Below, one piece after another: positions 22,556 to 48,367 of a DNA stretch of 64,000 bases (the stretch's first letter is position 1; each line of letters opens with the position of its first letter). The DNA lies in the NCBI GenBank assembly GCA_949317995.1, contig OX439044.1, positions 17,508,641-17,572,640 of the forward strand. Reading direction: 5' to 3'. The DNA is from Acholoe squamosa. Lineage: Eukaryota; Annelida; Polychaeta; Phyllodocida; Polynoidae. The notes below the pieces were generated by a model that saw nothing but the letters and a program-made list of their open reading frames with translations, was not told the DNA's origin and did not search any database. The translations under genes and the position numbers were made by a program.

Positions 22556-22631
22556 ATTATAATTAACCATGCCAAAATAAATCACCACGGCTATGCCGTG
22601 CTTAACTGATTTCCTTAATCCATCAAATACA

Positions 22632-25886: not shown

Positions 25887-26438
25887 CTCATTTATGTATC
25901 CCCATCCTTGGAGGGTTAATAGGACTGGTTGCGGGTCCCATACAAAGTCAATTGATTTTGATGGGGGCTTTTTGACTTTTAATAGTTCCCCTTACAAAGC
26001 CTGAAATGGTTGGTTCTTCACCTGCTGGCTTTCCATTGAAAGTGATAAAGCAGGATAGGAATGACCTGGAGGTGTTGATGGAGCTGTGTCCTACTCCTGT
26101 GTCTACGTATTAACTTAAGAACTGTATGCAATCAGTGACTGAGGGCTGTGTAGGGTGCACATCTCTCAGGCTTGTAAATGTTGTCTATTGTTTAGCACAG
26201 CCCTCATAGGCTGCCGCCATGTTAGGGCTCCATGCCATTGTCATGACCTGCCATGCTCTGAAGGAGAATCCCCATAGATCACACCATATGGGATAATCAG
26301 TAGCTGTGATCTTACTGCTAATGGGAACTTCTTGTTGGGGTCTCCTGTCCACAACAGGGTCGTAGGTGTAATAGAAATCTGCAGGTGCTCATCGTATCTT
26401 TTGAGCTTGGTTAGGCTGGCAAACCACGGTTGTGTTGC

Positions 26439-30699: not shown

Positions 30700-31270
30700 T
30701 GTCAATGGACTATTCTATGTATCATAATTATGAACGACATACTCAAACCAGACTGGCCAAGCTACCCCCTAGTTCAAACCAAGGTCAACCTATTTTTAGC
30801 TTGGCAGGGTGAAGAGTTCACACCTGCCCTCCTCCAGTGGGAAATCCCCAGGCTCCCTCCTGTGGATCCCCCACTGGAGAACTCAACTATTTTTAGATTC
30901 ACCTAGCCAATAGGAGCAGCTCACCCCTCCTACCACAGATTGGGACTGAGCAGAACCACCGACTCAGCATATTTGAGTCGCTCCCTATACTAAAAATAGA
31001 AAGTACAGAAATAGACACGACGTCATCTGGGCTTGCTCCTGACTATATAACCTAGTCAGGATCAAGCCTCAGCATCTTATTCTTCTCCAACCTAGACCCT
31101 ACGACACTCAGGTGCCTTGGCTTAGGATATAGCTTGGTCAGACTGGCGAGTACTATATTGTACACTGTATCAGTTACTCATCATGCCAATCTTACAATAA
31201 AGCTGGATCATCAACTGAATTGTCTGGACTCCTGTTACCTCACTTCATGACATGTAACGAGACATTGACA
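30700..31270 (+). repeat. 5' long terminal repeat (571 bp)
   Basis: The LTR starts TGTCAATG and ends CATTGACA, a perfect 8-bp inverted terminus. TATA box TATATAA at 31044-31050, polyadenylation signal AATAAA at 31196-31201, a GACGTCAT CRE-like site at ~31019. A second inverted repeat (CTCCAGTGGG ... CCCACTGGAG) spans ~30831-30880. It supplies the promoter for the genomic transcript. Confidence 0.96.
31031..31067 (+). promoter_or_regulatory. LTR core promoter: TATA box inside a 15-bp-arm hairpin
   Basis: GCTTGCTCCTGACTA (31031-31045) and TAGTCAGGATCAAGC (31053-31067) are inverted with one mismatch, and TATATAA spans the tip. The same structure is at 48128-48164 in the 3' LTR. It could extrude as a cruciform, or fold in read-through RNA; function is inferred. 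Confidence 0.7.
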
Positions 31271-31271
31271 A

Positions 31272-31284
31272 TGGTGGAGAACCC
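31272..31284 (+). other. Primer-binding site
   Basis: TGGTGGAGAACCC starts one base after the LTR. TGG pairs with the CCA end of a tRNA, as in retroviral minus-strand priming. Which tRNA is used would need the host tRNA set. Confidence 0.75.
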
Positions 31285-31322
31285 TATTTGTAACGTCCCA
31301 TTGTTTTCACCTCTCATGAGCC

Positions 31323-34300
31323 ATGAATCAAAGTGAGACAACAACCAAAGAGCCATTTACAGAAGATGCCGTTACATCCCCAGGGCTAGACGCGCCCCCA
31401 CCAGCAGCAGCAGCAGCAGCAGCACCAGCAGCAGCCCCAGACCAGCAGCAGACTGTTCCGTCATCTGACTCGTCACCTGACGCCTTTCTGTTGGATCCAA
31501 TCCTACCACCATCATTTCTAACACCCAAGCCAACACCTGTGAGTAGAAACAAAACTTTTTCATCAACAATTGATGACAATAATACCGGTACACAGACCAG
31601 CACCCCACTCACATCACAGGCACCAGGACTTAATCTGACTTTACCTGGTTTTTCAAGTGCTGAATCCCCAGTCCTAAGACTTGCTGGTCTACCAGGTGAA
31701 ACATCATCTACACCTGTAGCTTCACCAAGCCACTTAGACCTGGACTCACACCTAGAGCCCAGGTCACCACGATTACAGGCCGCCTTAGAAAGCATACCTA
31801 CATTACCTCGGCAGCCTGCTACCGGTACAGACACCACCTCACCCCCAGCTGGTTTTACACACCCCAACCCTTCTGAACTCACCTGGGACAGTTATATTCC
31901 CCCTGACCCTACATTACCACCTGAATCTGATCTCTGGAGACAAAGGATAAGATCAGCTATCAATAGGTGGAGATCAGTAAGGACAAATAGAGCTCAGGAG
32001 GCACCAGCCCCCAACACTCACAATACACAGTGTGGTGAAAGTCCCTCAGCATTTTTAGGTCGCATTAATAGAATACTAGAGGAGCAGTGGCCTGACGCCA
32101 CCACATCTAGTGACCCCTTCAGGTCATATCTAAATACCCCGACCCCTGAGGCCACCCCAACACCACCAAACACTCTCAATACCCCAAGCCTGGACACAGG
32201 GGCCACCTCTTCAGACTATACACCCCTACCTAGGCCCAGGAGAAGGAGGGCGCAGTCTACCTCACCTCTTAGAAGGCAGACACCCCCCTACTATAGGGTA
32301 TTGAGGAGCATAGACTCAGCAGTAACAGGTGCTATAGGAGCCACCTCCCAGATCTTCAGGAGAAGAGCCACCCCATACTGCACCTCAGAAGACAGCCTAA
32401 CCTCTGAGGACGATCCTGAAATCACCTTCCCTCACCTACACAGAGGCAGGATGGACAGCAGGACACCCACTACACACCCTCCCAGGTATGATCAGGACGA
32501 CCTGGCCAGGAATCTGGTAAGAGAATGTACACAGGCAGTCAGTGATTCCTTAAGCAATTTACTGACTGGCCAGATTAATCTCCTATCAGCTGAAATCCAA
32601 AGGGTAGGCCAGGAGCACACCAGCCATCTAAACAGAGTCAACGACAGGTTAGACAACATGGACACCTGGAAGGCTCAGATGGAGCGCGACTTGATACAAT
32701 CACACAGGAGAGCTGCAGAAGATAATGCAGATGTCCTGAGAAGATCTGAAATGATGGCAGCAGATATCTCTGAGCGCATCAACAGGAACATGGATGATGT
32801 TAGGAGAGAGATTTGCTCAGTTTATGGCCACAGGCCCCCACTCCAGCCCCCTCCTGCCCACGCCTCACCGGCAAACTTGGGTATACCTCACGCCTCACAG
32901 ACCCCCAGTGCACCTACCATGCCAGGTTACCAACATGCTGGCAATGACATAAGGTTAAGCCCACCCAGCGCCTTCCAGAACAACACTCCAGCTGGTTTAT
33001 TGGGTGCCACGCCCACCTCACACAGGTCAACCCGAGACGATATACCTAGTGTCTCCGCTACTCGCCAGATGGCAGCTCCAGCCACCACCCCAGTGCAGGC
33101 CAATGCTAACACATTAGGTACAGTGGCAGGTAGTATCTATATCCCTGCTCATGCTCGTACACCCAGCAACATGCCTATACCCATGCAAACCCTGTATTCT
33201 CAAAGCACAGGTGCACATCCAACAGGACACCGCCAGGCATACGACCACTCCACCCCTATGATACCAATGATAGGCCAATCTCACATCGCCAGTGGTTTGG
33301 GTCAAATGACTTTGAGTGATGACAAACTCTCCTCAGCCCAACTCAGCTCTTTTAATAAGCCTGAGACATTTGACAAACCAACTGAGTACAGGTCTGCCGC
33401 CAAATTCATCACAGAATTTAAGTTCTGGATCAGGAATGTATACCCCCGCCACCAACACCTGCACGCCTCCTGCCTATACACCTTCCTAAAGGGCAGGGCA
33501 GCTCAATGGTTCTTCGCCAATATTTTTGAGAAGCCCATCATGTATGACAATGAGGCAGTATATGCAGCCTTCCTGAAGCGTTTTGGCACCCCTGACCCTG
33601 CAACCATCAGCAAAGGTTATAGAAACAGGACACAACAGCCAGATGAGACAGTGGAACAGTACTTAGAAGACATGACCCTGCTCTTGGCAAACAGCAACCT
33701 GGAGGAGTCAGTTCAAGTGGATTACCTGATTAATGGGCTTAAGCCTCAAATTAAATCAGTAATCCTCCCTGACATGCCCAAAACCATAGCTGATGCAGAA
33801 AAAATGGCCCTTACACAGGAATTGCGCATAGAAGCACATAAAATGGCCATGGCTGGGACCCAACAAGCAGACCTCTGTGCCATGAACAGTAACAAAAACA
33901 ATAGTGGCACACCCAGAAAGGAAAACCAATACTCCAACAATAAAAAGTATGACAGGTACCCCAGTGGCAACTACAACAGGCAGTATGAGACCAGGACCCA
34001 AAACGGCTCCAGCAACCAATCTGACCCCAATTACAGAAGGTTCAGAAGGTCAAGGTCTCAGGATGCTTCTGGAGGAAGAAATAAACCACCTCAGCAAAGA
34101 GCTAGATCACAAAGCGCCTCCAGAAATCCTACCTCCAGGGATGACAACAAAATAGTCATCACAGTGGCCACAGCCCCGGCAAACAATAAACAGGTTTCCT
34201 TTAAAAAGGTCACACATGAGGCTGATATCATAAACAGCAATAGTCCCCCTTACCAGAATAGGAGGACCAGAGACCCCACACCCAGCAGATTCCCCAGGAA

Positions 34301-34433
34301 TAACAATGAAAGTGATCCGACGGAACCTGAGGGCAACGCTGACCTACATAACATTGATGAAGACAATCATGATCACAACGATGGTGATGAAGACTTCATT
34401 GATGAAGACACAGACTATGATGACGAAGAATAG
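31323..34433 (+). CDS. gag: Provirus Gag polyprotein (1036 aa)
   Basis: Structural protein that would form the particle and package RNA. The ATG at 31323 is the first in-frame start after the leader. Layout: Ala/Gln-rich and Pro/Ser/Thr-rich N-terminal third; a coiled-coil region at about 420-495 (Asp/Arg/Glu heptads, LNRVNDRLDNMDTWKAQM); capsid of the retrotransposon-gag type at about 680-835 (KFITEFKFWIRNVYP, FLKGRAAQWFF, FLKRFGTPDP, YLEDMTLLL). After the capsid there is no CCHC zinc knuckle. In its place is an Arg/Ser-rich stretch at about 904-940 (RRFRRSRSQ, RARSQSASR), followed by a very acidic C-terminus. At 1036 aa it is about twice the usual gypsy Gag. The frame ends in UAG and the same frame continues into pol. 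Possible splice donors lie at 31333 (CAAA/GTGAGA) and 31539 (CCT/GTGAGT). Confidence 0.93.
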   Translation: MNQSETTTKEPFTEDAVTSPGLDAPPPAAAAAAAPAAAPDQQQTVPSSDSSPDAFLLDPILPPSFLTPKPTPVSRNKTFSSTIDDNNTGTQTSTPLTSQAPGLNLTLPGFSSAESPVLRLAGLPGETSSTPVASPSHLDLDSHLEPRSPRLQAALESIPTLPRQPATGTDTTSPPAGFTHPNPSELTWDSYIPPDPTLPPESDLWRQRIRSAINRWRSVRTNRAQEAPAPNTHNTQCGESPSAFLGRINRILEEQWPDATTSSDPFRSYLNTPTPEATPTPPNTLNTPSLDTGATSSDYTPLPRPRRRRAQSTSPLRRQTPPYYRVLRSIDSAVTGAIGATSQIFRRRATPYCTSEDSLTSEDDPEITFPHLHRGRMDSRTPTTHPPRYDQDDLARNLVRECTQAVSDSLSNLLTGQINLLSAEIQRVGQEHTSHLNRVNDRLDNMDTWKAQMERDLIQSHRRAAEDNADVLRRSEMMAADISERINRNMDDVRREICSVYGHRPPLQPPPAHASPANLGIPHASQTPSAPTMPGYQHAGNDIRLSPPSAFQNNTPAGLLGATPTSHRSTRDDIPSVSATRQMAAPATTPVQANANTLGTVAGSIYIPAHARTPSNMPIPMQTLYSQSTGAHPTGHRQAYDHSTPMIPMIGQSHIASGLGQMTLSDDKLSSAQLSSFNKPETFDKPTEYRSAAKFITEFKFWIRNVYPRHQHLHASCLYTFLKGRAAQWFFANIFEKPIMYDNEAVYAAFLKRFGTPDPATISKGYRNRTQQPDETVEQYLEDMTLLLANSNLEESVQVDYLINGLKPQIKSVILPDMPKTIADAEKMALTQELRIEAHKMAMAGTQQADLCAMNSNKNNSGTPRKENQYSNNKKYDRYPSGNYNRQYETRTQNGSSNQSDPNYRRFRRSRSQDASGGRNKPPQQRARSQSASRNPTSRDDNKIVITVATAPANNKQVSFKKVTHEADIINSNSPPYQNRRTRDPTPSRFPRNNNESDPTEPEGNADLHNIDEDNHDHNDGDEDFIDEDTDYDDEE

Positions 34434-34481
34434 GTTTCAGGGGAAGGATGCAAAGCACCAAACCACCCCGCCCCCACCACA
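34431..34481 (+). promoter_or_regulatory. In-frame UAG between gag and pol: likely readthrough site
   Basis: Gag and pol share frame 0. After the TAG at 34431-34433 there are 16 sense codons before the GTG at 34482 where an isolated pol frame would be called; the first ATG is 34488. The next bases, GTTTCAGGGGAAGG, form a G/A-rich spacer before C-rich text able to pair (GGGG with CCCC). This is the arrangement used for Gag-Pol readthrough in gammaretroviruses. A point mutation in this copy is the alternative. Confidence 0.7.
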
Positions 34482-37400
34482 GTGGATATGAAATCTGGAA
34501 CGCCCCCCGCCAGCCACCACCCAACTGATATTCAAAGTGATGCAGAAATCAACTCCCTACAGCGGCCAAAAATGGATTTTTCCAAGGACAACAACCTGGA
34601 TTTTGGTGACAGCTCCTCTTCAGACAGCGAAGACTGTTACGAGGACAGCAGTAGCAGAGTGGCACGGCTTCAACTGAGAATCAAGTCAGATAAGTATGGG
34701 CAGCAAGGTAAGGTCTCTCGCATTAATACCGAGTTAACTAAAGGTGCAATCTTTGTCGACATAAATGACCACCCCTATAGAGCTTTGGTAGACTCTGGAG
34801 CATCCCTATCTTTTATCAGTCAAAAAATGGCAGATAAGGTAATACACACCCCAAACTTTAAACATGGAAGACGCTCACGTATGAATGTCCTCCTAGCAGA
34901 CAGATCCACAGTACAGGTAAACCATGCCATTACACTCAGCTTCCTAATTGAAGGCAAAGAATTTGTTACAAGATTACATGTTGTACCAAAATTAAATCAC
35001 CCCATCATTCTTGGAGTAAACTTCATGACCAAGTACAAAGCTAAGCTTAGTTTTGGCCCCAAGCTTCCCTCCATAAACACAATCAGGCCTGCTGAAAATA
35101 TCACAATACCACCAAACTCTGAAACCACTCTCAATGCTATTGTCAACGGTTCAGAAAATTTAAATAAATTGACAGGCATCACTGAAAATATCAAACCAGC
35201 CCTACCTTTCTTGATTAAGCACGCCTTGGTTAAACCCAAGACTAGTGCAAAATTAATACCGGTAACTGTGGCAAATCCAAATGATTTTCCTTTGCATTTA
35301 AAAAAGAAACACACACCTCTAGGTATTTTCAAACCTTTCAACATGAAAAAGGCTATACCAATAGGCCCCCTGGACACTCATCATTCACTGAACCATGTCT
35401 CACCTGCCAGCGAGCTTTTTCCAATAAATTGTGGTGAAGACCCCCTGGAGCAATTTCCCAAGGGTAATGAACCCCTACAATACAAAATTTGTGAGCAGCT
35501 CACTGAGACTCAAAAAACGCAGGTGCGTAAAATTGTTGAACAGAATAGGCAGGCTTTTGTGATTGATGACAGCGCCATTGGCTCCAACACTGAGAATGAG
35601 GTCAAGCTGGAATTAATTCCAGATTTCAAGCCCTGCAACAGGCCCTCATACAGAATGTCCCCTCATAAAGAAATTTTCCAAAGAGAGCTCCTAAATAAAC
35701 ATTTAAAACAGGGGATCATTGAGGAATGTACCAAGCCCTGTGAATGGAATTCACCAGCTTTCTTAGTACCCAAACCTCAGGGAGACAGATCTGTAGCCTC
35801 AGGCTGGAGAGTGGTAGTGGATTACAGATGGGTTAATCAAAACCTCAAATCTTTTTCCTACCAATTCCCCAGAGCAGACGACCTCATGCAACAAGTTGGC
35901 AGAACAGGTGCAAAATATTTCTCAAAATTAGATGTATATAGTGCCTACCATCAAATTCCCCTGGCGGAAGAATCTAGGCCTATTACCACCTTTTCAGCCA
36001 ATGGAACCAGATACATGGCCAAAGTTCTCCCAATGGGACTCAAAACCTCAGGTTTGTCTTTCATGAATGTCATGGAGCAATTGCTCATGAAATGCAAGTA
36101 CAGAAATGCAGTAGCATATGTTGACGATGTGGCTATTTATAGCCCCACCTGGGAAAGACACCTGCAGGACCTAGATGAGGTACTCAAACCTTTCATCAAG
36201 GGAAATATCAAACTGAAATCAGAAAAATGTGAATTTGGCACAACCAAGATGGATTTCTTGGGATTTTCTCTAGATCAACACGGTGTGTCACCTTCCCCAG
36301 ACAAAATCTGGCCAGTCAAAACCTTCCCTCCACCTAAAAACATCCACGACCTTAGATGTTTCAATGGCATGGCACAATTCTACAAAAGGTTTATTAAAGG
36401 TTTTGCCCACATAATGGCACCTCTATATGAAGCCACCAAAGGGACCTTTAAATGGACCACTAGTTGCCAGCGCGCCTTTGAGAAAATCAAAGCTTCAATT
36501 TGCACTGAAGCTGTCCTCAAATTCCCTGACTACAGCAAGCCATTTGTCATATTTACAGACTCAAGCAACTATAGCTTGGGAGCTGTGATCACACAGGTAG
36601 ATGAAAATGGTTTCTATAGACCAATTGAATTTGCAGGTAGAGGTTTGACACCACAGGAGACGAGATATGGAATAACAGACAAAGAACTTCTAGGCATCGT
36701 CTTTGCAGTTAAAAAGTTCCACCATTATGTGGATGGAGCCCACTTCAAAGTGTACTCAGACCACACTGCCCTGGTCTCCCTTTTTAATAAAAAAGAGAAC
36801 ATTACTAATGGGAGACTAGCCAGGTGGGTAGACACAGTCATGTCTTACGACTTTGAGGTGAAGTATCTGCAAGGCAGAGCAAATTTTGTGGCAGATTTCC
36901 TATCCAGGAGATCCTACCCACCCAGCTCTGATGACCCAGTGCCAATTAGATCCCAGGGGAAAATTATTCTCCCCCCCAAGAAATTAACTTTCTCTGATAT
37001 CTCCATGACCAAAGTCTTTAGGTCCAACGAGCCAGTACCCAAGAACCCAATCCAGATGGGACCCCCTAGATCAATTCTAAAAGGAGGTAAAATCTGGGGA
37101 AGCACAGGCAAACCACCCAAAGGTGTAATTGCAAAGAAAAATAGCTCTGAAAGAAACCACTTAGCTGCACTAGCAGCGCCAACGGAGCTGTGCGTCTTGA
37201 CCAGGGCACAGTCACAGAACCCCCAGGAAGACACACCCCCAGCCCCCAGCCAATCACGGTCCAGAACCGCTGTAAACAAACAAGGCCGACCCACAAAGGT
37301 CAAGCCAGCTGGTTCAAGGCCAAGAGGTCGACCTCCCAAGTCTAGGTCACCCAGGGTATCAGTTAAGGCAGCCAATGCCAGACGCGCCAAGCTGTCACAC

Positions 37401-38960
37401 AAAGTGTTACCTTTGGCTGAGAGGGCTATCACCAAAATTTGCAAGCACCCCTCACTCACACCCTCTAGAGAAGTATTGATTAAAGCACAAAAAGAAGATC
37501 TTTTTGCTTCATCAATGCTAAATTACATTCAGGATGGAAAGTTGCCACCAGATCAAGGCTTGACAAATCAGATTTTAGCCAATCATGATCAGTTCATCAT
37601 ACTAGATGAGGTACTTTTCAGAATCACTGACACAGTCATGGGTAAATCCCTAGACCCCTCCCTTCAAATTGTGATTCCAGAAAAGTGGGCAGAATCATTA
37701 ATTGAATCCACACACTGCTCCCCATTAGGAGGGCACTTGGGTTCAATGAAAACATATGCAGCTATCAGGTCACGGTACTATTGGCGCTCAATGTTCAAAC
37801 AGGTGTTTGATTACTGTGGCACATGTCACACATGCCTTACCACCAAAAAGAGGCCGAAAAACCTAAAATCACCAATGACACTCCGTGAACCTGTACTCGC
37901 AGCCTACTCTCATGTCACCATGGATACAATAGGACCATTTAACAAGGCTGTTAATGGATCCCACCACATACATGTGGTCACAGATCATGCCACTAGACAT
38001 GTAACAGCATGGTGCACAGAAGACAACACAAGCGCTGAGGTAGCCCTTGGTTTCTTTCAGAGAGTGATCTGCATCCATGGCACTCCCTCAGTTTTAAACA
38101 CTGACAATGCTAAACAATACACTTCAAAATTCTTTGCCCTCTTCTGCAATAAATTTGGTATTAAGCATGTCACAGGGAGCGCACACTGGTCCAGATCTCA
38201 AGGTCTATGTGAACGCCAACACCAGACAATAGAATCATCCCTCAGAGCCTTTGTGTCTAAATCACAAAAACATTGGTCAACCTTCCTCCAAGCTGTGATT
38301 TTTAGCATGAATAACACAGTCTCCAGTGCCTTGGGTTACTCACCCAATCTCCTGGTATTTGGAAAACAAACCCATCTACCCACAGAGGCTGCATTAGCAC
38401 TGATCACAGCAACAGAAGATGTTGACCCGGCACAAAAAGAAAATGTAGCCACTCATTTATTAAATCTCAGGGATGAAATTCAAATGAAGGCAGCAGAAAG
38501 CATGATAAAGGCCCACAAAAAGATGAAGGCCAAGCATGACGCCTCTGCAGAGGTAGCCACCTTCAATACCGGTCAGTTGGTGTACTTACATATACCTAAC
38601 CTCCTGGTAAAACACACCACCAAAAAGCTGCAACCCACATACTCTGGCCCTTACATCATAGTTAAGATGACCTCATCAGTGACTGCAATTTTAAAAAGGT
38701 TGCAGGATGGACATGTCTTTAAAAAGGCAGTACATGTATCCAGGCTGAGAAGACCAATTACAAGGGCCAACGCCAAAGCCATCATAAAAAGGCTCCAGAC
38801 TGGTCCTGTACAAACTCTCTTCGACCCTGATTCAAGCATAATTGCTGATACCAATACACCAGCCCCTCCCCTCAAGAAAAAGAGAGGAAGGCCGGCAAAG
38901 AAAGGTATCATCACCTTTGCCCCATCACCCAAGAAAAGGGCAAAGAAAAGGAAGCAATGA
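34434..38960 (+). CDS. pol: Provirus Pol polyprotein: protease, RT, RNase H, integrase
   Basis: The stop-to-stop frame is 34434-38960. Residues are numbered from the codon at 34482 (1492 aa). Aspartic protease LVDSGAS with Asp 104 and a C-terminal ILGVNFM. RT about 385-610 with FLVPKPQ, SKLDVYSAYHQI, LPMGLKTS and active site YVDD (546-549). RNase H with Asp 693 (IFTDSSNYS), Glu 735, Asp 805 (VADFLSR). Integrase zinc site H1078/H1085/C1115/C1118; catalytic Asp 1148 (MDTIGPF), Asp 1208 (NTDNAKQY), Glu 1244 (LCERQHQ), a D-35-E spacing. All catalytic residues are present, so it looks functional. A linker of about 200 residues between RNase H and integrase holds an AT-hook core (PRGRPPK, 948-951 RGRP). 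A second, KRGRPAKK (from 1468), lies in a very basic C-terminus. No chromodomain was recognised. Confidence 0.95.
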   Translation, partial: VSGEGCKAPNHPAPTTVDMKSGTPPASHHPTDIQSDAEINSLQRPKMDFSKDNNLDFGDSSSSDSEDCYEDSSSRVARLQLRIKSDKYGQQGKVSRINTELTKGAIFVDINDHPYRALVDSGASLSFISQKMADKVIHTPNFKHGRRSRMNVLLADRSTVQVNHAITLSFLIEGKEFVTRLHVVPKLNHPIILGVNFMTKYKAKLSFGPKLPSINTIRPAENITIPPNSETTLNAIVNGSENLNKLTGITENIKPALPFLIKHALVKPKTSAKLIPVTVANPNDFPLHLKKKHTPLGIFKPFNMKKAIPIGPLDTHHSLNHVSPASELFPINCGEDPLEQFPKGNEPLQYKICEQLTETQKTQVRKIVEQNRQAFVIDDSAIGSNTENEVKLELIPDFKPCNRPSYRMSPHKEIFQRELLNKHLKQGIIEECTKPCEWNSPAFLVPKPQGDRSVASGWRVVVDYRWVNQNLKSFSYQFPRADDLMQQVGRTGAKYFSKLDVYSAYHQIPLAEESRPITTFSANGTRYMAKVLPMGLKTSGLSFMNVMEQLLMKCKYRNAVAYVDDVAIYSPTWERHLQDLDEVLKPFIKGNIKLKSEKCEFGTTKMDFLGFSLDQHGVSPSPDKIWPVKTFPPPKNIHDLRCFNGMAQFYKRFIKGFAHIMAPLYEATKGTFKWTTSCQRAFEKIKASICTEAVLKFPDYSKPFVIFTDSSNYSLGAVITQVDENGFYRPIEFAGRGLTPQETRYGITDKELLGIVFAVKKFHHYVDGAHFKVYSDHTALVSLFNKKENITNGRLARWVDTVMSYDFEVKYLQGRANFVADFLSRRSYPPSSDDPVPIRSQGKIILPPKKLTFSDISMTKVFRSNEPVPKNPIQMGPPRSILKGGKIWGSTGKPPKGVIAKKNSSERNHLAALAAPTELCVLTRAQSQNPQEDTPPAPSQSRSRTAVNKQGRPTKVKPAGSRPRGRPPKSRSPRVSVKAANARRAKLSHKVLPLAERAITKICKHPSLTPSREVLIKAQKEDLFASSMLNYIQDGKLPPDQGLTNQILANHDQFIILDEVLFRITDTVMGKSLDPSLQIVIPEKWAESLIESTHCSPLGGHLGSMKTYAAIRSRYYWRSMFKQVFDYCGTCHTCLTTKKRPKNLKSPMTLREPVLAAYSHVTMDTIGPFNKAVNGSHHIHVVTDHATRHVTAWCTEDNTSAEVALGFFQRVICIHGTPSVLNTDNAKQYTSKFFALFCNKFGIKHVTGSAHWSRSQGLCERQHQTIESSLRAFVSKSQKHWSTFLQAVIFSMNNTVSSALGYSPNLLVFGKQTHLPTEAALALITATEDVDPAQKENVATHLLNLRDEIQMKAAESMIKAHKKMKAKHDASAEVATFNTGQLVYLHIPNLLVKHTTKKLQPTYSGPYIIVKMTSSVTAILKRLQDGHVFKKAVHVSRLRRPITRANAKAIIKRLQTGPVQTLFDPDSSIIADTNTPAPPLKKKRGRPAKKGIITFAPSPKKRAKKRKQ

Positions 38961-40118
38961 AATTTCGTTAAAATCACATATAGAGAAAGCACAAATACCC
39001 CCCCCCCACACACACAGAAACACCTCTCAACCCCGACCCCCCCCCCCCATACACACACACACACTAACACTCACCAGGGCTGTTGGCCCACACTCAGGCC
39101 ACGTGCCACACCCCTGCTATCTACAGGGACACCCGCACTCACACACACCTAGGCCCAATTACCCATCCTACACATGTGACCACCGACCTCAAAGCCCCGA
39201 CCCGATGATAACAAATTCCCTCAGCGGCACTCATCATCAGGTACCCCCTTTTTCTCTTCTTTGAAGATTTACTAACACTCACCTCTTAACTTATCACCTC
39301 GCACGCCTTTTGTTTTTATATTTATCCTTTTATTATATATATCTCGTTTTTCTCAAACCAATTTTATTTTTCCTTTAAATTATTTATCAAAGGCCCAATG
39401 AGCCCAATTATACACTGTTTGACCCCAGGATCAAACCCCTCAACCAGCCGCACTGTCAACCACTCAAGGGCAGCATATGCACACAATTTTGTCCAGCTAT
39501 GGTTAGGTAGCCACATAAATTGCCCACGGCAGCAGTGTATCCTCTGGTACATGTTTTTCATTTAAAGAAAAATCATGCATACACCGGCTAGATAGCTTTT
39601 CAGGGCTCCTATTTACCAGTTGACACGCCTATTGTAGGTGCTCGTATTCCCCCATGCCCACCCATGTTTGTACCTCTGTTTAGCACGAGGGCGCTGATAC
39701 AGGTAGAACCCCATATTTATGAGCTGTCAATTAAGAGCAGCTCGGTACCCCAGGCATGATGTTTCTCACACACATGTATTCATGGTCAGCAAATTTTTAG
39801 ACATGTGAACTGACCTCTCCACTCCCGCCTTATCTCAAACCTGACCCCAGGAATTCCAATTATAAGCTTATTACCGGGGTATAGGTTCCAAATTTGCATA
39901 AGGGACATATGCCCAAACTGCAGCCATCCAATAGAATCAGGCCCAGCCTTTTTAGGGCAAGACATACCACTATAGGGATATCCAAAAGTGAGAAATAGCC
40001 ACCCTCACGGATGGGTTTATAAGCCTTAGCCCACCCCCACCTTAGCCACTCCACAATATCACCCAGATCACACCATATCAGCGTTCCAAGTGAACAAGTG
40101 CCTGGACCAGGGATCACC
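38961..40118 (+). other. Non-coding stretch between pol and the mini-exon
   Basis: CA/C-rich, with (CA)n and poly-C at 38997-39065. A 140-codon frame (38842-39264) overlaps the pol end but is low-complexity His/Pro text and unsupported. The region probably carries splice acceptors for subgenomic RNAs. Confidence 0.5.
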
Positions 40119-40147
40119 ATGGCGTTTACGACGTGCAATAAGCCCAG
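40119..40147 (+). CDS. Candidate 29-nt coding mini-exon of a spliced accessory gene
   Basis: The ATG at 40119 has an ideal Kozak context (ATCACCATGGC). Nine codons plus two bases follow, then a donor CCCAG/GTAGGC at 40148. If not spliced, the frame stops at once (TAG at 40149-40151). The donor phase (two bases carried) matches frame B of the terminal exon at 45812. I infer a two-exon accessory protein; the splice is not proven, and which upstream acceptor would bring this exon into an mRNA is open. Confidence 0.45.
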
Positions 40148-40293
40148 GTAGGCCTGTCCTATGTGCCCATTAACCAGTACTAGTTTTATCAGTCGTTCTT
40201 ATATGGTCAATGACATAATCTGATGTCATGCTACCCAGGTACCTCTATTAACCAATGGCAGTGTGAGTACTAGAATACCTGTAAAAAGTTTGA

Positions 40294-40884
40294 TTGTTCA
40301 CTTCGCGCCCCATACCTGACTCAATTGTTTGTGCCCCCATACTCACCCCTCTGTATGGTTTACAGCTTATTCAAAAAAGTAGCTTACTCAAATTAAAACT
40401 TCTCTTCAGTGAAAATTGGACAATCTACGACCTCCTGGGACCGGTTGGATTATTGAAAGAAGGAAGAGACATTTTTGAGTTTAGGCAGCTCATTGTACAC
40501 CACCAAAATTTGGTCTTCAATATGACTTCTAGACATTTAGCATATTACCTGAATGACCCCGCAGTCCACAAGGAACTGCCGCTATCAAACCCGTTGGTCT
40601 CTACCCTCGTCAAGAGGATGTTACTTTATGTCTGTTGTGACATGCCAACTTCTCCAGATTGGAGCACCTTCAAACCTAAAACAGCCGCTTATATAGCCTT
40701 GCTGTGCGCGCGCACACTTCTGGTCTCTGACCAGCCTTTAAAAGACCTTCCCAGATACTTTAGTGGGACGGGCAGAGCTTTGGTCATCAGGGACGCCATA
40801 GAATTAGTAGTTCAGAAAGCCATTCTTGAGACCCACATGTGGTCCAATAACCTGTCTAAACTCCCACCTACAGCCCATTGCTGA
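40294..40884 (+). CDS. Unrecognised accessory ORF between pol and env
   Basis: The open frame runs 40294-40884 (196 codons from a TTG; first ATG 40522, giving 120 aa). A strong acceptor, pyrimidine-rich then TTTACAG, ends at 40365 and leaves the frame in phase 0 from 40366, giving 172 residues. So an exon joined to an upstream start is more likely than internal initiation. The predicted protein is a mixed helical, Leu-rich globular domain with two Cys (YVCCDM) and no signal peptide or transmembrane segment. It matches no retroviral family I can name (not dUTPase, not a CCHC protein, not an obvious RNA-binding Arg-rich protein). The gag donor at 31539 is also phase 0, so a Gag N-terminal fusion is one possibility. 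Confidence 0.6.
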   Translation: MFTSRPIPDSIVCAPILTPLYGLQLIQKSSLLKLKLLFSENWTIYDLLGPVGLLKEGRDIFEFRQLIVHHQNLVFNMTSRHLAYYLNDPAVHKELPLSNPLVSTLVKRMLLYVCCDMPTSPDWSTFKPKTAAYIALLCARTLLVSDQPLKDLPRYFSGTGRALVIRDAIELVVQKAILETHMWSNNLSKLPPTAHC

Positions 40885-41136
40885 AATAAATCTGACAGGG
40901 TAAGCTACAAAATTTTTACTCTCACAACCCCCCCATTTAGTCTTAGCCTACTAATACCACAGGTCCAGTCACATCTCCATCATACCCCCCTCACACCCTG
41001 GCCAAGCAACCACCCCCACACTGTTTAAACAAACCACACTACACCCACCTAGGTGTGCCTACAGTCCCCTCTCACAGGAGGACACCTCCCACACAATCGA
41101 CCATAAAATCCCCCACCACATAACCCAATTGCTGAT

Positions 41137-43989
41137 ATGACTCACAAACTCAATCCCCCATCACATCTCTTTTACAGAGCCGCAGTACCTCTAATAGTGC
41201 TGTGTATCCTCTTCAACCTCACCAATGGATCACAGGACAAGGAGTTACCACAAAGGATCGTATTCAGACCAAATTATGGAGCACTGTTTACCCAGTTACC
41301 ACAGCCCCTAATCTCAAATTTCATGGACTACCCCCTAGTTTTCAGTCTGAACATCTCCCTGTCCCCCAACCTCCAAAGACCTGATAAAGTGTCACCCCTA
41401 CTTAAGCCCGGCACCCCACCATACATTACCCAAACAGCCAACAATCTGGACACATTGATTAGCACCCTATTTGACAAAACCCAAAATTCATTAGACCTTT
41501 TGATTAATTTAATTTCCAACCCCAGGAACCGTCAGGCCAGAAATGCCCCAGGACAAATCATTGGCGATATTCTCAGAGCAACCCTAGGCCTGGGAACCCA
41601 ACCTGAAATTGACCTTCTAAACGCTGACATTTCTGACATTGACAGAAGATTGGCCACTAAAATGCACGTGGTTGAATTAGCCACCCATTTTCTATTAAAT
41701 ATCTCAGAATACAATTACAATTCCCTAAACATCCTATCTGAATTCCAAAATGATACTGACGACGCACTGTCCCTGCTGGCCCAAAATCTAAAAACATTAG
41801 ATTCCAACTTTTCAAACATTATTTTAAATTTAGAATCCCAAGCCAGACAGGACACCTTTTATTCCATGTTATTTTCTGCAGCAAACTCACAAATTGAGTC
41901 ACTAATCGACCTTCAGGAGGATCTAGATATTTTATTAAGTGCCATAAACAGCTTAATGGAGGGCGAGCTCCCTCCCAACTTAATTTCCCATGACACCCTC
42001 AGGTCAGGCCTAAACAACCTCTCCAGCGCCTTGAGTAGCGCCCACCAAGGCATATCAATCCTTGACATACCCATAGGTCATTACTATAAAAGACGAGTAA
42101 GTGCCCAGTGGAGCGACCCCTCCACCCTCTTCATCTCACTACCCATACCCATAGGACTAGGGGATAATGTTTACACCCTATTCAGAACTGAAACCTTTCC
42201 AGTCCCCTTTGACACATCAGATGTTAACTCTACAGGTTACACCCTGGTACAGCCCCTACCCCCCTACATAGCCATGTCTCCCAGCCACGCCCATTTCATG
42301 GAGCTTCAGCAGGCAGACTTAGACCTATGTACACAAGACACCTTCATCAGCTGTAACCTACCCCTCCCCCTGCTATCACCTCTACACCCCACCTGCACTC
42401 TGTCCCTACTCCTGGACCTACCTGATGCAGTGCACCACACCTGCAGTTTCACTGCACACATGGCTGCACCCATACCCAACCTAATCAAACCCATTTCTAG
42501 GTCAACATATCTCATGATTACTGGTAAGTCGCCATCTTACTTACAGTGTCACAATGCGGGACAAATCCCAATGATCAATGCAGCATACTCAGTCATGTCA
42601 GTACCATGCCTATGCTCTATTAAGAATGCAGGCATGGTTATGATCAATTCAAATATAACCTGCGTACAAAATATAACACTGGAACCCATGGCCATGAGCC
42701 CCATAAACTTACCACTATGGCGACATTTTGGTTCACCTCCAGCTAACATATCAGGCGTTACCATGACAACCGTGCCACGGTCCCTGGAACTACCTAACTT
42801 CCAGCGTCTCAAATCCTTACACAACCAAAAAATAGTACCCTTAATTAAAAGCGTACTCACCCTTAGACGAGCAGCCAAGGGTCTGTCAGATGAGTCTTCT
42901 CTTCTGTCAGCAAGTTCACTAACACACCTTGGTTACCATTTGGAATATTCGATCTGGTTCCACTTAGTGACCCCTCTGATTGCCATCCTCTGTTGTGCAA
43001 TGACATGCCAGATCCAGGTGCGCGTGTCACGCCTGGCTCAGTTGGTGACAGTCCATCTAGCACTCAACACACCCAGAATGGCGGATGCAGCGACTTGGCA
43101 GAATCTCAAGGATCTGATCAACAAGGCCAACAACAACTGGCCCTCGACACCCACACAACAGCCCGTGGAGCAAAGCCTGGAATTTATCCAGACTCCTGGA
43201 CGCTACGATGTGATGTGGGCAATCGGCTCCGTCCTGATCATCTTGTACCTGGCCCGCCTCTTCATCTCCAGATGCTGCAGACACTGGCCACACTGTAGGC
43301 AAGACGAATCCGATGGCTTGCCCCAGTTTGTCCTCCGCATCCACTCCCAGGGCAGAACATACGAGTTTGTTGTGGGAACCATGATTTTCGGCTCCAACCT
43401 ATGGCCACCCTTCATTAAGGCCCCTAAAATTGGAAAGCCCCGCCTCACTATGCCCTTTGGCCGCCACCTGGATCTCAACTGGAAGGCCAAGGTCAGCTTC
43501 ATAATTGGCGCTCAATTAAGAGTGGTGCAGCTCGAGAGATACCCTCGCTGCCCCCTTTTCTGGAGACTACCCCTCTACAGGATCCTAAATGGGAAGCCAC
43601 ATGTTATGACCCTGGTCATCAAATCCAAGACCCAGCCAGATTTCCAGCTGACCCCAGGATATGAGACAATCGAAGACACCAACATCCCAGAAATCCCCAG
43701 GATCCAGGTCCCCAGCAGCCCCAGCCCCAGGCCCAGGGGTACCCAAAATCCCAGCGGCCAGGTGGAGCTAACTAAATTCACACCAAAGGACTACCAACCC
43801 CCTAAGGACATGTACGTGTTCGACCCGACCCGGGAGGATATATCTACCAAATTCCCACCAGAAATCGGTATGTTTATTTTTCCGTTCAAAATCCTTAAGG
43901 TCCGTGTCTTCATTTATGTGGGGATACCCACATGTCTTCGTAGCCAAAATTGCTCTACAGCCACCGGCCACCCCTATTTTCTCATATAA
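41137..43989 (+). CDS. env: Provirus envelope-like glycoprotein (950 aa)
   Basis: Membrane fusion glycoprotein candidate. A signal peptide is at about 15-31 (PLIVLCILFNLTNG). The N-terminal subunit is about 100 residues. A furin-type site RNRQAR ends at residue 135 and is followed by a moderately hydrophobic helix-prone segment and long heptad-like helices (about 180-300). There are many N-glycosylation sequons. A first transmembrane segment lies at about 610-627. The order short subunit/furin site/helical region suggests the baculovirus F/errantivirus Env group, but I could not align it. Unusual features are a second hydrophobic segment (about 693-712) and a further ~240-residue, Pro-rich soluble tail. 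The frame is unbroken. A splice acceptor-like TTTTACAG at 41177 lies inside the first 14 codons. A donor ATCG/GTATGT after 43867 (codon 911) could swap the last 40 residues for another tail. Confidence 0.85.
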   Translation: MTHKLNPPSHLFYRAAVPLIVLCILFNLTNGSQDKELPQRIVFRPNYGALFTQLPQPLISNFMDYPLVFSLNISLSPNLQRPDKVSPLLKPGTPPYITQTANNLDTLISTLFDKTQNSLDLLINLISNPRNRQARNAPGQIIGDILRATLGLGTQPEIDLLNADISDIDRRLATKMHVVELATHFLLNISEYNYNSLNILSEFQNDTDDALSLLAQNLKTLDSNFSNIILNLESQARQDTFYSMLFSAANSQIESLIDLQEDLDILLSAINSLMEGELPPNLISHDTLRSGLNNLSSALSSAHQGISILDIPIGHYYKRRVSAQWSDPSTLFISLPIPIGLGDNVYTLFRTETFPVPFDTSDVNSTGYTLVQPLPPYIAMSPSHAHFMELQQADLDLCTQDTFISCNLPLPLLSPLHPTCTLSLLLDLPDAVHHTCSFTAHMAAPIPNLIKPISRSTYLMITGKSPSYLQCHNAGQIPMINAAYSVMSVPCLCSIKNAGMVMINSNITCVQNITLEPMAMSPINLPLWRHFGSPPANISGVTMTTVPRSLELPNFQRLKSLHNQKIVPLIKSVLTLRRAAKGLSDESSLLSASSLTHLGYHLEYSIWFHLVTPLIAILCCAMTCQIQVRVSRLAQLVTVHLALNTPRMADAATWQNLKDLINKANNNWPSTPTQQPVEQSLEFIQTPGRYDVMWAIGSVLIILYLARLFISRCCRHWPHCRQDESDGLPQFVLRIHSQGRTYEFVVGTMIFGSNLWPPFIKAPKIGKPRLTMPFGRHLDLNWKAKVSFIIGAQLRVVQLERYPRCPLFWRLPLYRILNGKPHVMTLVIKSKTQPDFQLTPGYETIEDTNIPEIPRIQVPSSPSPRPRGTQNPSGQVELTKFTPKDYQPPKDMYVFDPTREDISTKFPPEIGMFIFPFKILKVRVFIYVGIPTCLRSQNCSTATGHPYFLI
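43868..43873 (+). promoter_or_regulatory. Splice donor near the end of env
   Basis: GAAATCG/GTATGT; one base of codon 911 is carried across (phase 1). This phase matches frame A of the exon starting at 45812, so a spliced env would gain an alternative Pro/Gln-rich C-terminus ending at 46050. Confidence 0.45.
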
Positions 43990-44862
43990 TGGAACCGACC
44001 AACCATACCACAGCACACGACCGGATAGCCACACACAGGATAACACATCCTATGTGGGGATACCCCACCTCCCCCCCCTACCCCACAGATAACCCAGCCC
44101 GGCGATGCCGAGCCAAGCCTCATCTAATCCCAGACTCCCATCCCATACCCCGTCAGTCTTATCAGCATAACAAACATAGCCCCATTAAAACAAACATACC
44201 GCCACATACCTATACAATAGCAGCCCCACTGACCCAATTTTGAATGTTGTTAGCGGATCACAGACGTCAAGTGCTGACGCTGCGTCTGGGCATTTTTCGC
44301 GCCAAACGCAGCGTCATGACGTCGCCGAGCGTCCCCAGTACCGAAACCAGTCACCAAATGCAAATTTTTCGCACGGGATCACGCTCACATGACAATATGC
44401 ATAACCAAATAAACGTCCACACGTGGTGTGCACGCCAATACAATAACATATGCACGTGTTCATATTGACAATAGACTTGCAACATACCCCGACTTACCAC
44501 TCCCCGATCACTATACCAATCTAATTCAGACAACACCGGCACCCAATTTACAAGCCCCAAAATTTATAACAAAACTCAGTACTGGTGATCACAGACGCTA
44601 TATTATAAGTAATCAGTGACAATCAGAAGGCTCCTCAGGCCACGGGTATAATAAGATCACAGTCTCTAATCACAGTCAAAATCACAGGGTAATCACAGAT
44701 CTCTGATTCAGCGTCTGTCATGATCTTCCGGCCTCAGGCACCTTTCCAACTCACGGACCCATCTCAGCCTGGAAAATAAAATTCGCCCCGTTAGATCAAA
44801 AACATCCACCACCCCAGTTGGACAAACTGAATTCAGAAATTCAAAATTACACGAGACTGACC
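43990..44862 (+). other. Post-env region, first part
   Basis: No long plus-strand frame with protein character (43950-44243 and 44244-44468 are short and His/Pro- or Arg-rich). The region holds the CRE/E2F hairpin described separately and the 3' end of the candidate antisense unit. AATAAA at ~44407 (+) could serve as an early polyadenylation signal. Confidence 0.5.
44263..44323. promoter_or_regulatory. Hairpin with two CRE-type sites around an E2F-type site
   Basis: GACGTCA (44263) and TGACGCTGCGT (44275-44285) are mirrored by ACGCAGCGTCA (44306-44316) and TGACGTC (44317-44323). The loop holds TTTTTCGCGCCAAA, which fits the E2F consensus. It could be an internal promoter element or an RNA structure in the unspliced transcript; the sequence does not decide. 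Confidence 0.55.
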
Positions 44863-45149
44863 TCAACTCAGCAAGTACCAGACAGGCACTCTCCGGTGTC
44901 CCCGCCGCCTCGGCCATCGCCTCCCTTGAAGGCCCGACACCGGTAAGGCTCGTTAAAAACGTGGACCCACACATAGACAAAGCTGAAACAAACACGGAGA
45001 CCTCACTTTACTAACCTTCCTCCCCAAAAATCGAAGCCAAAAATTCCTCTAGAAAAGTCCCCACGTACTCACCCCAGCGGCCACATGTAGACAGCCAGGC
45101 AGAACAGAGCCCCAGAGGGCATAACCACCCAGCTCACGCTCAGCAACAT
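44708..45149 (-). CDS. Candidate spliced antisense gene in the provirus
   Basis: On the minus strand an ATG at 45149 opens 25 codons with a strongly hydrophobic, signal-peptide-like sequence (ALFCLAVYMW). It ends at donor CTGGG/GTGAGT (exon end 45073). An acceptor GTTTGTTTCAG lets exon 2 start at 44982 in matching phase, and that frame continues to a TGA at 44868. The product would be 63 residues with three Cys near its C-terminus. Exon 2 then has a donor GAG/GTCAGT (exon end 44862) and exon 3 an acceptor TTTTATTTTCCAG (start 44768). In the other frame, exons 2 and 3 join to a helical Arg/Glu-rich end stopping at 44708. Five well-formed signals in 450 bp are suggestive but could be chance. 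Plus-strand splice signals overlap (44872-44942). Confidence 0.35.
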
Positions 45150-45257
45150 GTCTCCTTTTTCTGCGTTTCTTTTCGAGCTCCAAATCTCTCAAATCTTAAC
45201 CACGATCTGCCCGCTTCAAAATTTCTACAGCCTATGACATCATAATGCAATTCATCG

Positions 45258-45266
45258 CCTTTTATA
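45258..45266 (-). promoter_or_regulatory. Antisense TATA box (TATAAAAGG)
   Basis: The TATAAAAGG on the minus strand lies 109 bp upstream of the antisense ATG at 45149. A start site about 30 bp downstream would leave a ~85-nt leader. It is the best core-promoter match in this part of the provirus. Confidence 0.45.
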
Positions 45267-45269
45267 CTA

Positions 45270-45811
45270 GGCCTAGCCGCAGAAAAATCAAGTCGTTTTT
45301 CAAACCTAACTTTCGAACCCAAACCCAGGCAAATCCTTCAAGATTTCATCGTCACACCATCCAGCCATGAAAATTTTCGAGACCCCCCCCAGACCCATCT
45401 CAACCCTGAAGGGTTGGTGCAAGTCTACATCTCTCATTTACCGTAAACTCATAGGCCTTAACGTAAATCCCATACATTAACCAAACGCTGTACAGACGCT
45501 GGCGCAGTGGCGCCTCTTGGTGTTATTTTTCCGAACTAAAATCCGAGACGGAGCAGCGTACGGCCCAGCGACCGTCCGCTGGCGCCGCCAGGTGTGTAGC
45601 ATTGGAATTAACATAGAGTCCTTGGATACGGCCTCCTGCCTAGCTCCAAACCTAAACCTTTGCTTCTGTATGGTACTCCCAAGTGTCGACTTAACCAATT
45701 TTTAGCACCATGAGTTAATCTTGGTATTTTTGTGGACCTGATTGTGAACCATACAACCTGACACAGTCTCTAATGCCTTGTTTTCTCTGCTCTATGTTGT
45801 TTTCTGAACAG
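45270..45811 (+). other. Post-env region, second part, ending in a strong splice acceptor
   Basis: G/C-richer than the rest; short opposed ORFs at 45477-45705 overlap each other and are unsupported. The last ~35 bp (CCTTGTTTTCTCTGCTC...TTTTCTGAACAG) are a classic polypyrimidine tract and acceptor, ending at 45811. Confidence 0.6.
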
Positions 45812-46451
45812 GTCAACGCGAGATGACTGGGACCAGTCCAACACCGACGAAGCCGGCCCCGAAAGACCAGACACCTCCTCAGCCGAAAAATACCCAGGTC
45901 AGGAAACCAGTTACCATCAATACTCAGGAGGAACGAACCCTAATGGCGGCAGCGGAAATACACGCAGCAGAAGGGCCGACACCCCCATCCCAGAGGCCCG
46001 CTACAACTGGAGGAGCAACCCCCGCACCCCAGCAAGGCCAAAATGCCTAATAGCAGGATGCAGACTGTGCTCCAGCACCCCTGAGGGTTTTGTCTGCCCC
46101 TGCTCCTACACAGGCATCAAGTTCAGACCCCTAGTGTCCCAGAGACACTACACCACCACCACCTTCACCAATAGCACCTCAAACCTAGATCACCAGGACA
46201 ACAAAAATGACAATAGCTCCGAGTCTGAAGACTCTGACTCTTCAACCTCTACTTCTGCCGAACCAGGGAACCTGGCCTCGGTGGAAGAGGATTTTAGAGA
46301 CATAGATTTAGACCCCAGCACTCCTATTAAAAGAGCTGCACTCAGAAGGAAGTGGGCAAGAGGCAGATTCTACATAAGAACCCCCAGACCCCACCCTAAC
46401 CTACCCCCCTCCAGTGTCAGTGCTGGAGACAGTAAACCATGGAAACATTAA
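45812..46451 (+). CDS. Terminal exon open in two frames: Cys-rich accessory protein (B) and alternative env tail (A)
   Basis: Frame B is open from 45774, through the acceptor, to TAA at 46449-46451. Entered in phase 2 it gives about 212 residues: an Asp/Ser/Pro-rich start, then a cysteine cluster of pattern C-x4-C-x2-C-x8-C-x-C (KCLIAGCRLC and VCPCSY, DNA 46041-46106) fit for zinc binding. Next come a Thr/Ser stretch, an acidic Ser/Glu/Asp stretch and a basic patch (KRAALRRKWARGRF). Frame A, entered in phase 1, is open to TAA at 46048-46050 and is Pro/Thr/Gln-rich (79 residues). Frame B fits the mini-exon donor at 40148 and frame A fits the env donor at 43868. The zinc cluster plus basic patch suggests a nucleic-acid-binding regulator, by analogy with retroviral transactivators only; no sequence family is recognised. 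Confidence 0.55.
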
Positions 46452-47796: not shown

Positions 47797-48367
47797 TGTC
47801 AATGGACTATTCTATGTATCATAATTATGAACGACATACTCAAACCAGACTGGCCAAGCTACCCCCTAGTTCAAACCAAGGTCAACCTATTTTTAGCTTG
47901 GCAGGGTGAAGAGTTCACACCTGCCCTCCTCCAGTGGGAAATCCCCAGGCTCCCTCCTGTGGATCCCCCACTGGAGAACTCAACTATTTTTAGATTCACC
48001 TAGCCAATAGGAGCAGCTCACCCCTCCTACCACAGATTGGGACTGAGCAGAACCACCGACTCAGCATATTTGAGTCGCTCCCTATACTAAAAATAGAAAG
48101 TACAGAAATAGACACGACGTCATCTGGGCTTGCTCCTGACTATATAACCTAGTCAGGATCAAGCCTCAGCATCTTATTCTTCTCCAACCTAGACCCTACG
48201 ACACTCAGGTGCCTTGGCTTAGGATATAGCTTGGTCAGACTGGCGAGTACTATATTGTACACTGTATCAGTTACTCATCATGCCAATCTTACAATAAAGC
48301 TGGATCATCAACTGAATTGTCTGGACTCCTGTTACCTCACTTCATGACATGTAACGAGACATTGACA
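47797..48367 (+). repeat. 3' long terminal repeat (571 bp)
   Basis: Same length and, as far as I can read, the same sequence as the 5' LTR, offset by 17097 bp. TATATAA at 48141-48147 and AATAAA at 48293-48298, the latter serving as polyadenylation signal for proviral RNAs. Followed by ACAC (48368-48371), the target duplication. Confidence 0.96.

What the first reader, a model, noticed from the sequence alone, without database searches (positions are those of the whole stretch)
40119..46451. tat/rev-like two-exon accessory gene overlapping an alternative env tail
One acceptor (45811/45812) opens an exon that is free of stops in two frames. Frame B (to 46451) has a C-x4-C-x2-C-x8-C-x-C cluster, an acidic stretch and a basic patch. 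It is in phase with the donor of a 29-nt, Kozak-perfect mini-exon at 40119-40147 whose own frame stops at once if unspliced. Frame A (to 46050) is in phase with the donor at 43868 near the end of env. Two donors with different phases, each fitting a different open frame of one exon, is the logic of lentiviral regulatory genes. I know of none described in Ty3/gypsy-type elements.
Basis: partly seen in the sequence, partly recalled or inferred. Interest (0 to 1): 0.88.

Follow-up and report, generated by a model that had tools for sequence, protein, structure and literature searches.

The report
Spliced accessory gene in gypsy provirus

Summary
Frame B of exon 45812-46451 is a real gene. Of 40 close genomic copies, 38 keep it open, none has a frameshift, and changes are strongly synonymous (pN/pS 0.39; 0.10 for shared changes in the part only B uses). 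Sixteen older copies (86-95% identical) agree: B-only pN/pS 0.37, all five Cys invariant. No homologue was found.

Frame A is different. Its openness follows from B's composition (5000 of 5000 synonymous recodings), it shows no amino-acid constraint (pN/pS about 1.5), and it is cut short in 5 of 16 older copies. It is a passive tail at most. Env constraint does end at or close to donor 43867.

New point: the mini-exon also fits acceptor 41178 at the Env signal peptide. In 35 of 38 copies the ATG at 41137 is out of Env frame, so Env needs a spliced start too. Best model: one start exon serves Env and, by skipping the Env body, protein B. That is BLV Rex logic rather than tat/rev. A Rev-like spliced factor is already known in Ty3/gypsy (CERV of Cer1). 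No RNA data; function is inferred.

The parts
30700..31270 (+). 5' LTR (TGTCAA...TTGACA); TATA-like 31044, AATAAA 31196, R-region donor candidate 31111
   Evidence: 100% identical to 3' LTR over 572 nt; 4-bp flank repeat ACAC by eye; motifs; donor
31323..34433 (+). gag, ending in UAG with pol in the same frame
   Evidence: (capsid match below cut-off)
34434..38960 (+). pol: protease, RT, RNase H, integrase
   Evidence: Pfam; Ty3 Gag-Pol is the best solved relative
40119..40147 (+). mini-exon: start codon plus 8 codons and 2 nt (phase 2); proposed shared first coding exon of Env and of protein B
   Evidence: ATG, frame and donor kept in 38 of 38 copies; exact 31-mer at 128 genomic places, reversed control 0
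40522..40884 (+). ORF-X, 120 aa, unknown
   Evidence: pN/pS 0.61, not significant, n=27
41178..43867 (+). Env body exon; acceptor 41178 lies just before the signal-peptide core; 2690 nt, so skipping it changes the frame downstream
   Evidence: acceptor rank 2 of 1187; AG in 38 of 38; Env-frame pN/pS 0.41 in 42952-43866
43868..45811 (+). proposed intron; contains a hypervariable block (about 44580-45429)
   Evidence: donor 9-mer identical in 38 of 38; Env-frame constraint lost in 43868-43986; block classes
45812..46451 (+). exon B: frame B, 212 codons, Cys cluster 46044-46103, acidic stretch, NES-like segment, basic patch
45812..46050 (+). frame A: possible Env C-terminal tail, no amino-acid constraint seen
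47797..48367 (+). 3' LTR; U3 carries the most structured RNA of the element
   Evidence: fold z -6.6 here and -8.1 in the 5' copy

Best explanation
A recently inserted, multi-copy, env-bearing Ty3/gypsy provirus (17.7 kb) encodes an accessory protein B of about 222 residues. Proposed route: a leader exon is spliced to the mini-exon (40119-40147), which gives about the first ten residues. From there the mRNA either continues into the Env body (acceptor 41178), giving the Env precursor, or skips Env and joins 45812 in frame B, giving protein B. When Env is included the same 3' exon is read in frame A as a short, unimportant Env tail. B most likely works in the nucleus as a nucleic-acid-binding regulator of the element's own RNA (Rex/Rev/CERV-like export or splicing control), using its five-Cys cluster and basic patch. 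Shown: frame B is under purifying selection; Env constraint ends at or close to 43867; the genomic ATG at 41137 cannot start Env in 35 of 38 copies examined. Inferred: the junctions, the shared use of the mini-exon (about 0.7), the nuclear RNA function (about 0.45).
For: B is coding: 38 of 40 copies open, 0 of 40 frameshifted, acceptor AG 40 of 40; 41 synonymous changes against 22.1 expected, 0 of 2000 simulations as high; B-only part 29 against 12.0; shared changes there 13 against 4.3. Sixteen older copies: B-only 52 against 28.3, five Cys 16 of 16, 15 of 16 open, indels of multiples of three except one 10-nt deletion (chosen from rows without stops). Genome-wide, 136 of the 150 scored matches show no stop in the matched part (counted by eye; 1425 candidates). 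Codon score of the B-only part exceeds all 96 off-frame chunks. Shared start: mini-exon phase 2 equals the phase of 41178, the second-best acceptor of the element; in 35 of 38 copies a 1-nt length difference puts ATG 41137 out of Env frame; 3 of 3 mini-exon changes in 38 copies are synonymous (P 0.06). Env end: pN/pS 0.41 before the donor, 1.09 after; density 0.102 against 0.193 per site; frameshift indels in 3 of 38 copies over 918 nt before, 5 of 38 over 122 nt after. Function: five Cys within 20 residues in 0 of 5000 random placements; Cys cluster 9 synonymous to 2 replacement changes, basic patch 9 to 1. Precedents: BLV Rex, CERV.
Against: No RNA data. Acceptors before the mini-exon are weak. 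The leader donor 31332 also offers phase-2 upstream AUGs. The whole 39.7-41.35 kb stretch is nearly identical between copies, so conservation of the mini-exon alone says little. The genome-wide mini-exon test is weak: 13 extra places with third-position changes, 8 with second-position changes; the first-position control did not complete. The first 152 nt of Env after 41178 show no significant constraint (Env frame 0.69, n=11, P 0.39). Five-Cys clusters occur in 43 of 527 control windows and NES-like motifs in 445 of 527; the NES-like segment had 4 synonymous to 7 other changes, one a stop, among close copies, although its hydrophobic residues are invariant in 16 older copies. The AlphaFold model of B is uninformative (mean pLDDT 45.8).
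Confidence: 0.6

Rival explanations
1. B and Env start in the leader, not in the mini-exon: donor 31332, 10 nt inside gag, joins 41178 or 45812, and upstream AUGs such as 31271 give phase 2; the gag AUG gives frame A.
For: Donor 31332 ranks 13th-14th of 672 and is GT in 20 of 20 copies fetched (20 of 38 located were fetched); phases fit by arithmetic.
Against: The four distinct changes within 31271-31332 seen in 20 copies all fall at first codon positions of that frame, against 3 of 3 synonymous in the mini-exon; both numbers are tiny. It leaves the perfect-Kozak mini-exon with its good donor unexplained.
Confidence: 0.2
2. B is a Tax/Tat-like transcription activator of the LTR rather than an RNA export factor (concerns function only; compatible with the splicing model).
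For: Acidic Ser-rich stretch next to a Cys cluster; a CRE-like ACGTCA (label recalled) starts 24 nt before the TATA-like box in U3.
Against: The basic patch and a CERV-like Cys region fit RNA binding as well; the strongest RNA fold of the element is in U3, present at the 3' end of its transcripts. None of this is decisive.
Confidence: 0.25
3. Frames A and B are both selected, overlapping products.
For: Frame A is open in 39 of 40 close copies and its stop is kept in 40 of 40; Env constraint ends at or close to the donor that feeds it.
Against: Openness of A is automatic given B; A pN/pS 1.49, shared changes 3.0, older copies 1.45; A cut short in 5 of 16 older copies, B in 1.
Confidence: 0.08
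4. Frame B is a chance open frame in C-rich, T-poor sequence, protected only by youth of the copies.
For: The window copy is young: its LTRs are identical.
Against: Synonymous bias specific to frame B and absent in both other frames; sequence just past the Env donor has frameshifts in 5 of 38 copies.
Confidence: 0.01

Closest known systems
Deltaretrovirus Rex (BLV, HTLV)
   Same: Doubly spliced 3' regulatory gene; in BLV, Rex shares the Env AUG and a second intron is removed (PMC1839114, passages); arginine-rich RNA-binding motif; structured response element at the 3' end of viral RNAs.
   Different: No sequence similarity found; Ty3-type pol; no Cys cluster is mentioned for Rex in the passages seen; BLV's element lies between AATAAA and the poly(A) site, here the fold is in U3; only one frame of the 3' exon is selected.
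CERV of Cer1 (Ty3/gypsy, C. elegans)
   Same: Ty3/gypsy element; [quoted passage not shown] essential Cys-rich loop; needed for genomic RNA export (PMC10309623, abstract and sections 4, 6, 9, 15 read).
   Different: CERV is 517 aa from five exons and shares its start with gag; Cer1's ORF there does not resemble retroviral Env, whereas this element has a separate Env.
Lentiviral tat/rev
   Same: Small spliced regulatory exons, one 3' exon open in more than one frame (recalled).
   Different: Here only one frame is selected, and the start exon also fits Env.
Errantiviruses / env-bearing gypsy elements
   Same: Ty3-type pol with an envelope gene downstream.
   Different: Element is 17.7 kb with a 950-aa Env frame, ORF-X and gene B; no Pfam envelope family above threshold.

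Membership tests
Ty3/gypsy (Metaviridae) | pol order PR-RT-RH-IN and closest similarity to Ty3 | tested here: met
   Pfam order; best solved relative Ty3 Gag-Pol 553 bits, then 4ol8 RT/RNase H 358 bits (Ty3 by recall), then 248 bits and lower
Ty3/gypsy (Metaviridae) | LTRs, TG...CA ends, short target duplication | tested here: met
   (4-bp ACAC, by eye)
Deltaretrovirus Rex/Tax | sequence homology to Rex or Tax | tested here: not met
   no Pfam match; no homologue at E up to 10 in the 5.8-billion-protein set; only two PDB matches, E 1.1 and 1.9, unrelated
Deltaretrovirus Rex/Tax | start exon shared with Env, spliced past env | tested here: inconclusive
   phases and copy comparison fit; no RNA
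Deltaretrovirus Rex/Tax | structured response element in the 3' LTR bound by the protein | tested here: inconclusive
   U3 fold z -8.1 and -6.6; binding untested
Lentiviral Tat/Rev | homology to Tat or Rev | tested here: not met
Lentiviral Tat/Rev | two selected products from overlapping frames of one exon | tested here: not met
   frame A unconstrained
CERV | sequence homology to CERV | not tested
   CERV sequence not fetched; one search found no homologue in the general protein set
CERV | required for genomic RNA export | not testable with these tools
   needs an experiment

The most novel reading that the evidence does not exclude
A Ty3/gypsy lineage has independently built a complex-retrovirus-style regulatory circuit: an RNA export factor that shares the Env start exon, acting on a structured U3 element carried by its transcripts, with a fast-changing intron block between env and the factor as a further cis-acting part.
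Probability: 0.3. Interest if true: 0.85.

Novelty: new variant of a known kind. Interest (0 to 1): 0.68.

Why it matters
Regulatory genes with shared exons are usually treated as a mark of complex vertebrate retroviruses. A selected, spliced accessory gene in an env-bearing Ty3/gypsy provirus, beside CERV in Cer1, would mean that this way of controlling unspliced RNA arose more than once in reverse-transcribing viruses. Many copies have frame B open, so the prediction can be tested with RNA data from the host.

Tried and rejected
Relatives elsewhere: a protein search with B found none; viral-contig scans with B, an RT piece and P0001 gave none, and the pol alignment gave one 5.6-kb contig, 30% identical at best, of which I only looked at the long frames; genome contigs with the pol alignment gave none. 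Env has one distant protein relative, P0001 (24% over 47%); pol has nine relatives at 36-69% over all or nearly all of the region searched; both come without genomic context. B against PDB: two insignificant matches. Rfam at gathering scores and the tRNA scan: nothing. NES motif as evidence on its own: dropped after the control. AlphaFold of B: uninformative. The Env structure job was never accepted (queue full). Testing the leader for coding constraint: too few changes. First-position control for the mini-exon: not completed. Intron blocks as accessory genes: long open stretches differ between the six class examples looked at.

Rows dropped: two of 40 copies (L063, L082) had no Env donor in the fetched piece and are missing from the 38-copy sets; 7 of 40 lacked block anchors; 20 of the 38 located copies were fetched for the leader. 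The 16 older copies were chosen from the 136 rows marked without stops, so their openness is biased; their synonymous bias and the A/B contrast less so. The 40 close copies are the best-scoring ones of 172 candidates, not a random sample.

Full report
What the element is. Two LTRs, identical over 572 nt, lie at 30700-31270 and 47797-48367, flanked by ACAC on both sides. Between them are gag, pol, a 120-aa ORF-X, env, and the exon in question. Pol has the Ty3 order protease-RT-RNase H-integrase, and a profile of ten related pol proteins (one of them the window's) matches Ty3 Gag-Pol best among solved structures. Env has no family above its cut-off; the one protein relative found is P0001, 24% identical over 47%, with the same NRQ-x-R cleavage-like site.

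The observation. The long open frame B is unlikely by chance (5 of 2000 shuffles of the env-to-LTR stretch, 0 of 2000 locally), has no ATG, and its B-only part has the codon usage of the element's genes (0.129; true-frame chunks mean 0.063, 96 off-frame chunks at most 0.082). Frame A's openness carries no information, since recodings of B keep it open (5000 of 5000), and its codon score is that of an off-frame (-0.096). Conversely, with A fixed, B stays open over the overlap in 629 or 1372 of 5000 recodings, depending on the codon model, so it is the B-only part that proves B.

Copies in the same genome. A DNA search of the genome scored 40 copies of the exon at 98-100% out of 172 candidates. 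I fetched these. Acceptor AG is present in 40 of 40; frame B is open in 38 of 40; the only length change is a 6-nt deletion in 7 copies; frame A is open in 39 of 40. With the window's own sequence as background, 89 changes split for frame B into 41 synonymous, 46 replacement and 2 nonsense, against 22.1 synonymous expected (pN/pS 0.39, 0 of 2000 simulations as high). In the part that only B uses pN/pS is 0.21, for changes shared by two or more copies 0.10. In the overlap neither frame is significantly constrained (B 0.85, A 1.49), and frame C over the exon gives 1.38. A protein search listed 150 scored matches of 1425 candidates at 78-100% identity, 136 without a stop in the matched part (counted by eye; some matches are partial). 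Sixteen older copies, picked from rows without stops, are 86-95% identical to the window in DNA. In them frame B is open in 15, indels are multiples of three except one 10-nt deletion, B-only pN/pS is 0.37 (52 synonymous, 28.3 expected, 0 of 2000 as high), overlap B 0.72 (P 0.06), overlap A 1.45. All five Cys are invariant. Frame A reads to its expected end in 11 of 16 and is cut to 7-42 codons in 5, one of them the copy whose B is also shifted.

Where Env starts. The element's second-best acceptor is at 41178, just before the hydrophobic core of the Env signal peptide, and it takes a phase-2 donor in Env's frame, which the mini-exon is. The genomic ATG at 41137 looks like an Env start in the window, but in 35 of 38 copies a 1-nt length difference between it and 41178 puts it out of frame. 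So in those copies Env with its signal peptide needs a spliced start. The mini-exon keeps ATG, frame and donor in 38 of 38 copies, though the whole 39.7-41.35 kb stretch varies little. Its three changes there are all synonymous (P 0.06). Exact copies of exon plus donor occur at 128 genomic places, the reversed control at none. Third-position variants add 13 places, of which the 7 shown in the capped list are synonymous; second-position variants add 8. That difference is small and the first-position control did not complete, so this test is weak. The 152 nt after 41178 give Env-frame pN/pS 0.69, not significant (n=11). The leader donor 31332 with upstream AUGs is a live rival.

Where Env ends. 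In 42952-43866 Env-frame pN/pS is 0.41 (47 synonymous, 27.4 expected; shared changes 0.13). Past the donor, in 43868-43986, it is 1.09 (n=23), with twice the density of changes and frameshifting indels in 5 of 38 copies, against 3 of 38 in the 918 nt before. The donor 9-mer is identical in 38 of 38; nine invariant sites alone prove little. Env coding therefore effectively stops at or close to 43867, as expected if it is spliced there. What follows, frame A, appears not to matter in sequence or length.

Model. The Env body exon 41178-43867 is 2690 nt, two more than a multiple of three, so including or skipping it switches the frame of exon 45812. Mini-exon plus Env body plus exon gives Env with tail A; mini-exon plus exon gives protein B. 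In BLV, Rex likewise shares the Env AUG and is made from a doubly spliced RNA (PMC1839114, passages). HTLV makes Tax and Rex from a doubly spliced mRNA of exons 1, 2 and 3 (PMC6714889 and PMC3504254, passages). A candidate leader donor at 31111 would give a leader without AUG after the TATA-like box; in the 18 of 20 fetched copies where the search string was found it was unchanged (16) or changed only upstream of GT (2).

What B does. Evidence is only from anatomy. Five Cys in 20 residues is far from chance for B's five Cys (0 of 5000 placements), though 43 of 527 control windows of non-coding frames also hold such a cluster. Among close copies the Cys cluster (9 synonymous to 2 replacement) and basic patch (9 to 1) are strongly constrained. 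A NES-like segment precedes the basic patch; matches of this kind are common (445 of 527 control windows), but the class-1a motif near a patch of charge +8 is rare (4 of 527). Its hydrophobic residues are invariant in 16 older copies, while close copies show 4 synonymous and 7 other changes in the segment. CERV of Cer1 gives the functional precedent: spliced mRNA, Cys loop essential for genomic RNA export. The strongest RNA fold of the element is in U3 (z -8.1 and -6.6 in the two LTR copies); BLV's response element is also in the 3' LTR, but between AATAAA and the poly(A) site. I put nuclear RNA regulation at about 0.45, transcription activation at 0.25, the rest open.

Print record. In searches of the held library, CERV is the only spliced regulatory gene of a Ty3/gypsy element that I recognised from titles and abstract beginnings; other listed papers, such as those on extra ORFs in plant elements, were not opened. 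Subscription papers and preprints are mostly not held. For Troyka (PMC12440569) I read part 1 of 5, which does not describe this.

Noticed in passing
44580-45429 (L050-L089): Block inside the env-to-B intron falls into at least six classes (11, 6, 6, 4, 3, 3 of 33 copies; 7 of 40 lacked anchors). Class examples are about 60-75% alike in the long alignments, one pair sharing a 97% end of 227 nt, inside proviruses that are otherwise much more alike; no ORF common to the examples was seen.
   Followed up: partly
31000-46451: Copies are mosaic: leader and 39.7-41.35 kb pieces differ little from the window (0-5 of about 700 nt in 20 copies; 0-20 of about 1650 nt in 38), the env 3' end more (0-35 of 1061), and the intron block massively.
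   Followed up: partly
34431-34433: gag and pol share a frame and are separated by a single UAG, suggesting read-through as in gammaretroviruses (recalled comparison).
   Followed up: no
40522-40884: ORF-X, 120 aa, no Pfam match; ORF frame pN/pS 0.61 (n=27, P 0.13), 1 of 38 copies frameshifted.
   Followed up: partly
30700-30999 and 47797-48099: U3 RNA is far more structured than shuffles (z -8.1, -6.6); ACGTCA at 31020 starts 24 nt before the TATA-like box.
   Followed up: partly
34434-38960: Pol carries AT-hook-like GRP motifs (recalled label) between RNase H and integrase and at its C-terminus; gag shows no CCHC knuckle by eye.
   Followed up: no
41137-43989: Env weakly matches the torovirus spike family over one stretch, below the curated cut-off.
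   Followed up: no
25326-25991 and 27159-27674, minus strand: Open frames that look by eye like a recombinase and a reverse transcriptase of another (DIRS-like?) element.
   Followed up: no
16259-17593, minus strand: 444-codon open frame, perhaps a host gene; not identified.
   Followed up: no
18769-25173: Dense tandem repeats with spacings near 11, 38, 41 and 134 nt.
   Followed up: no
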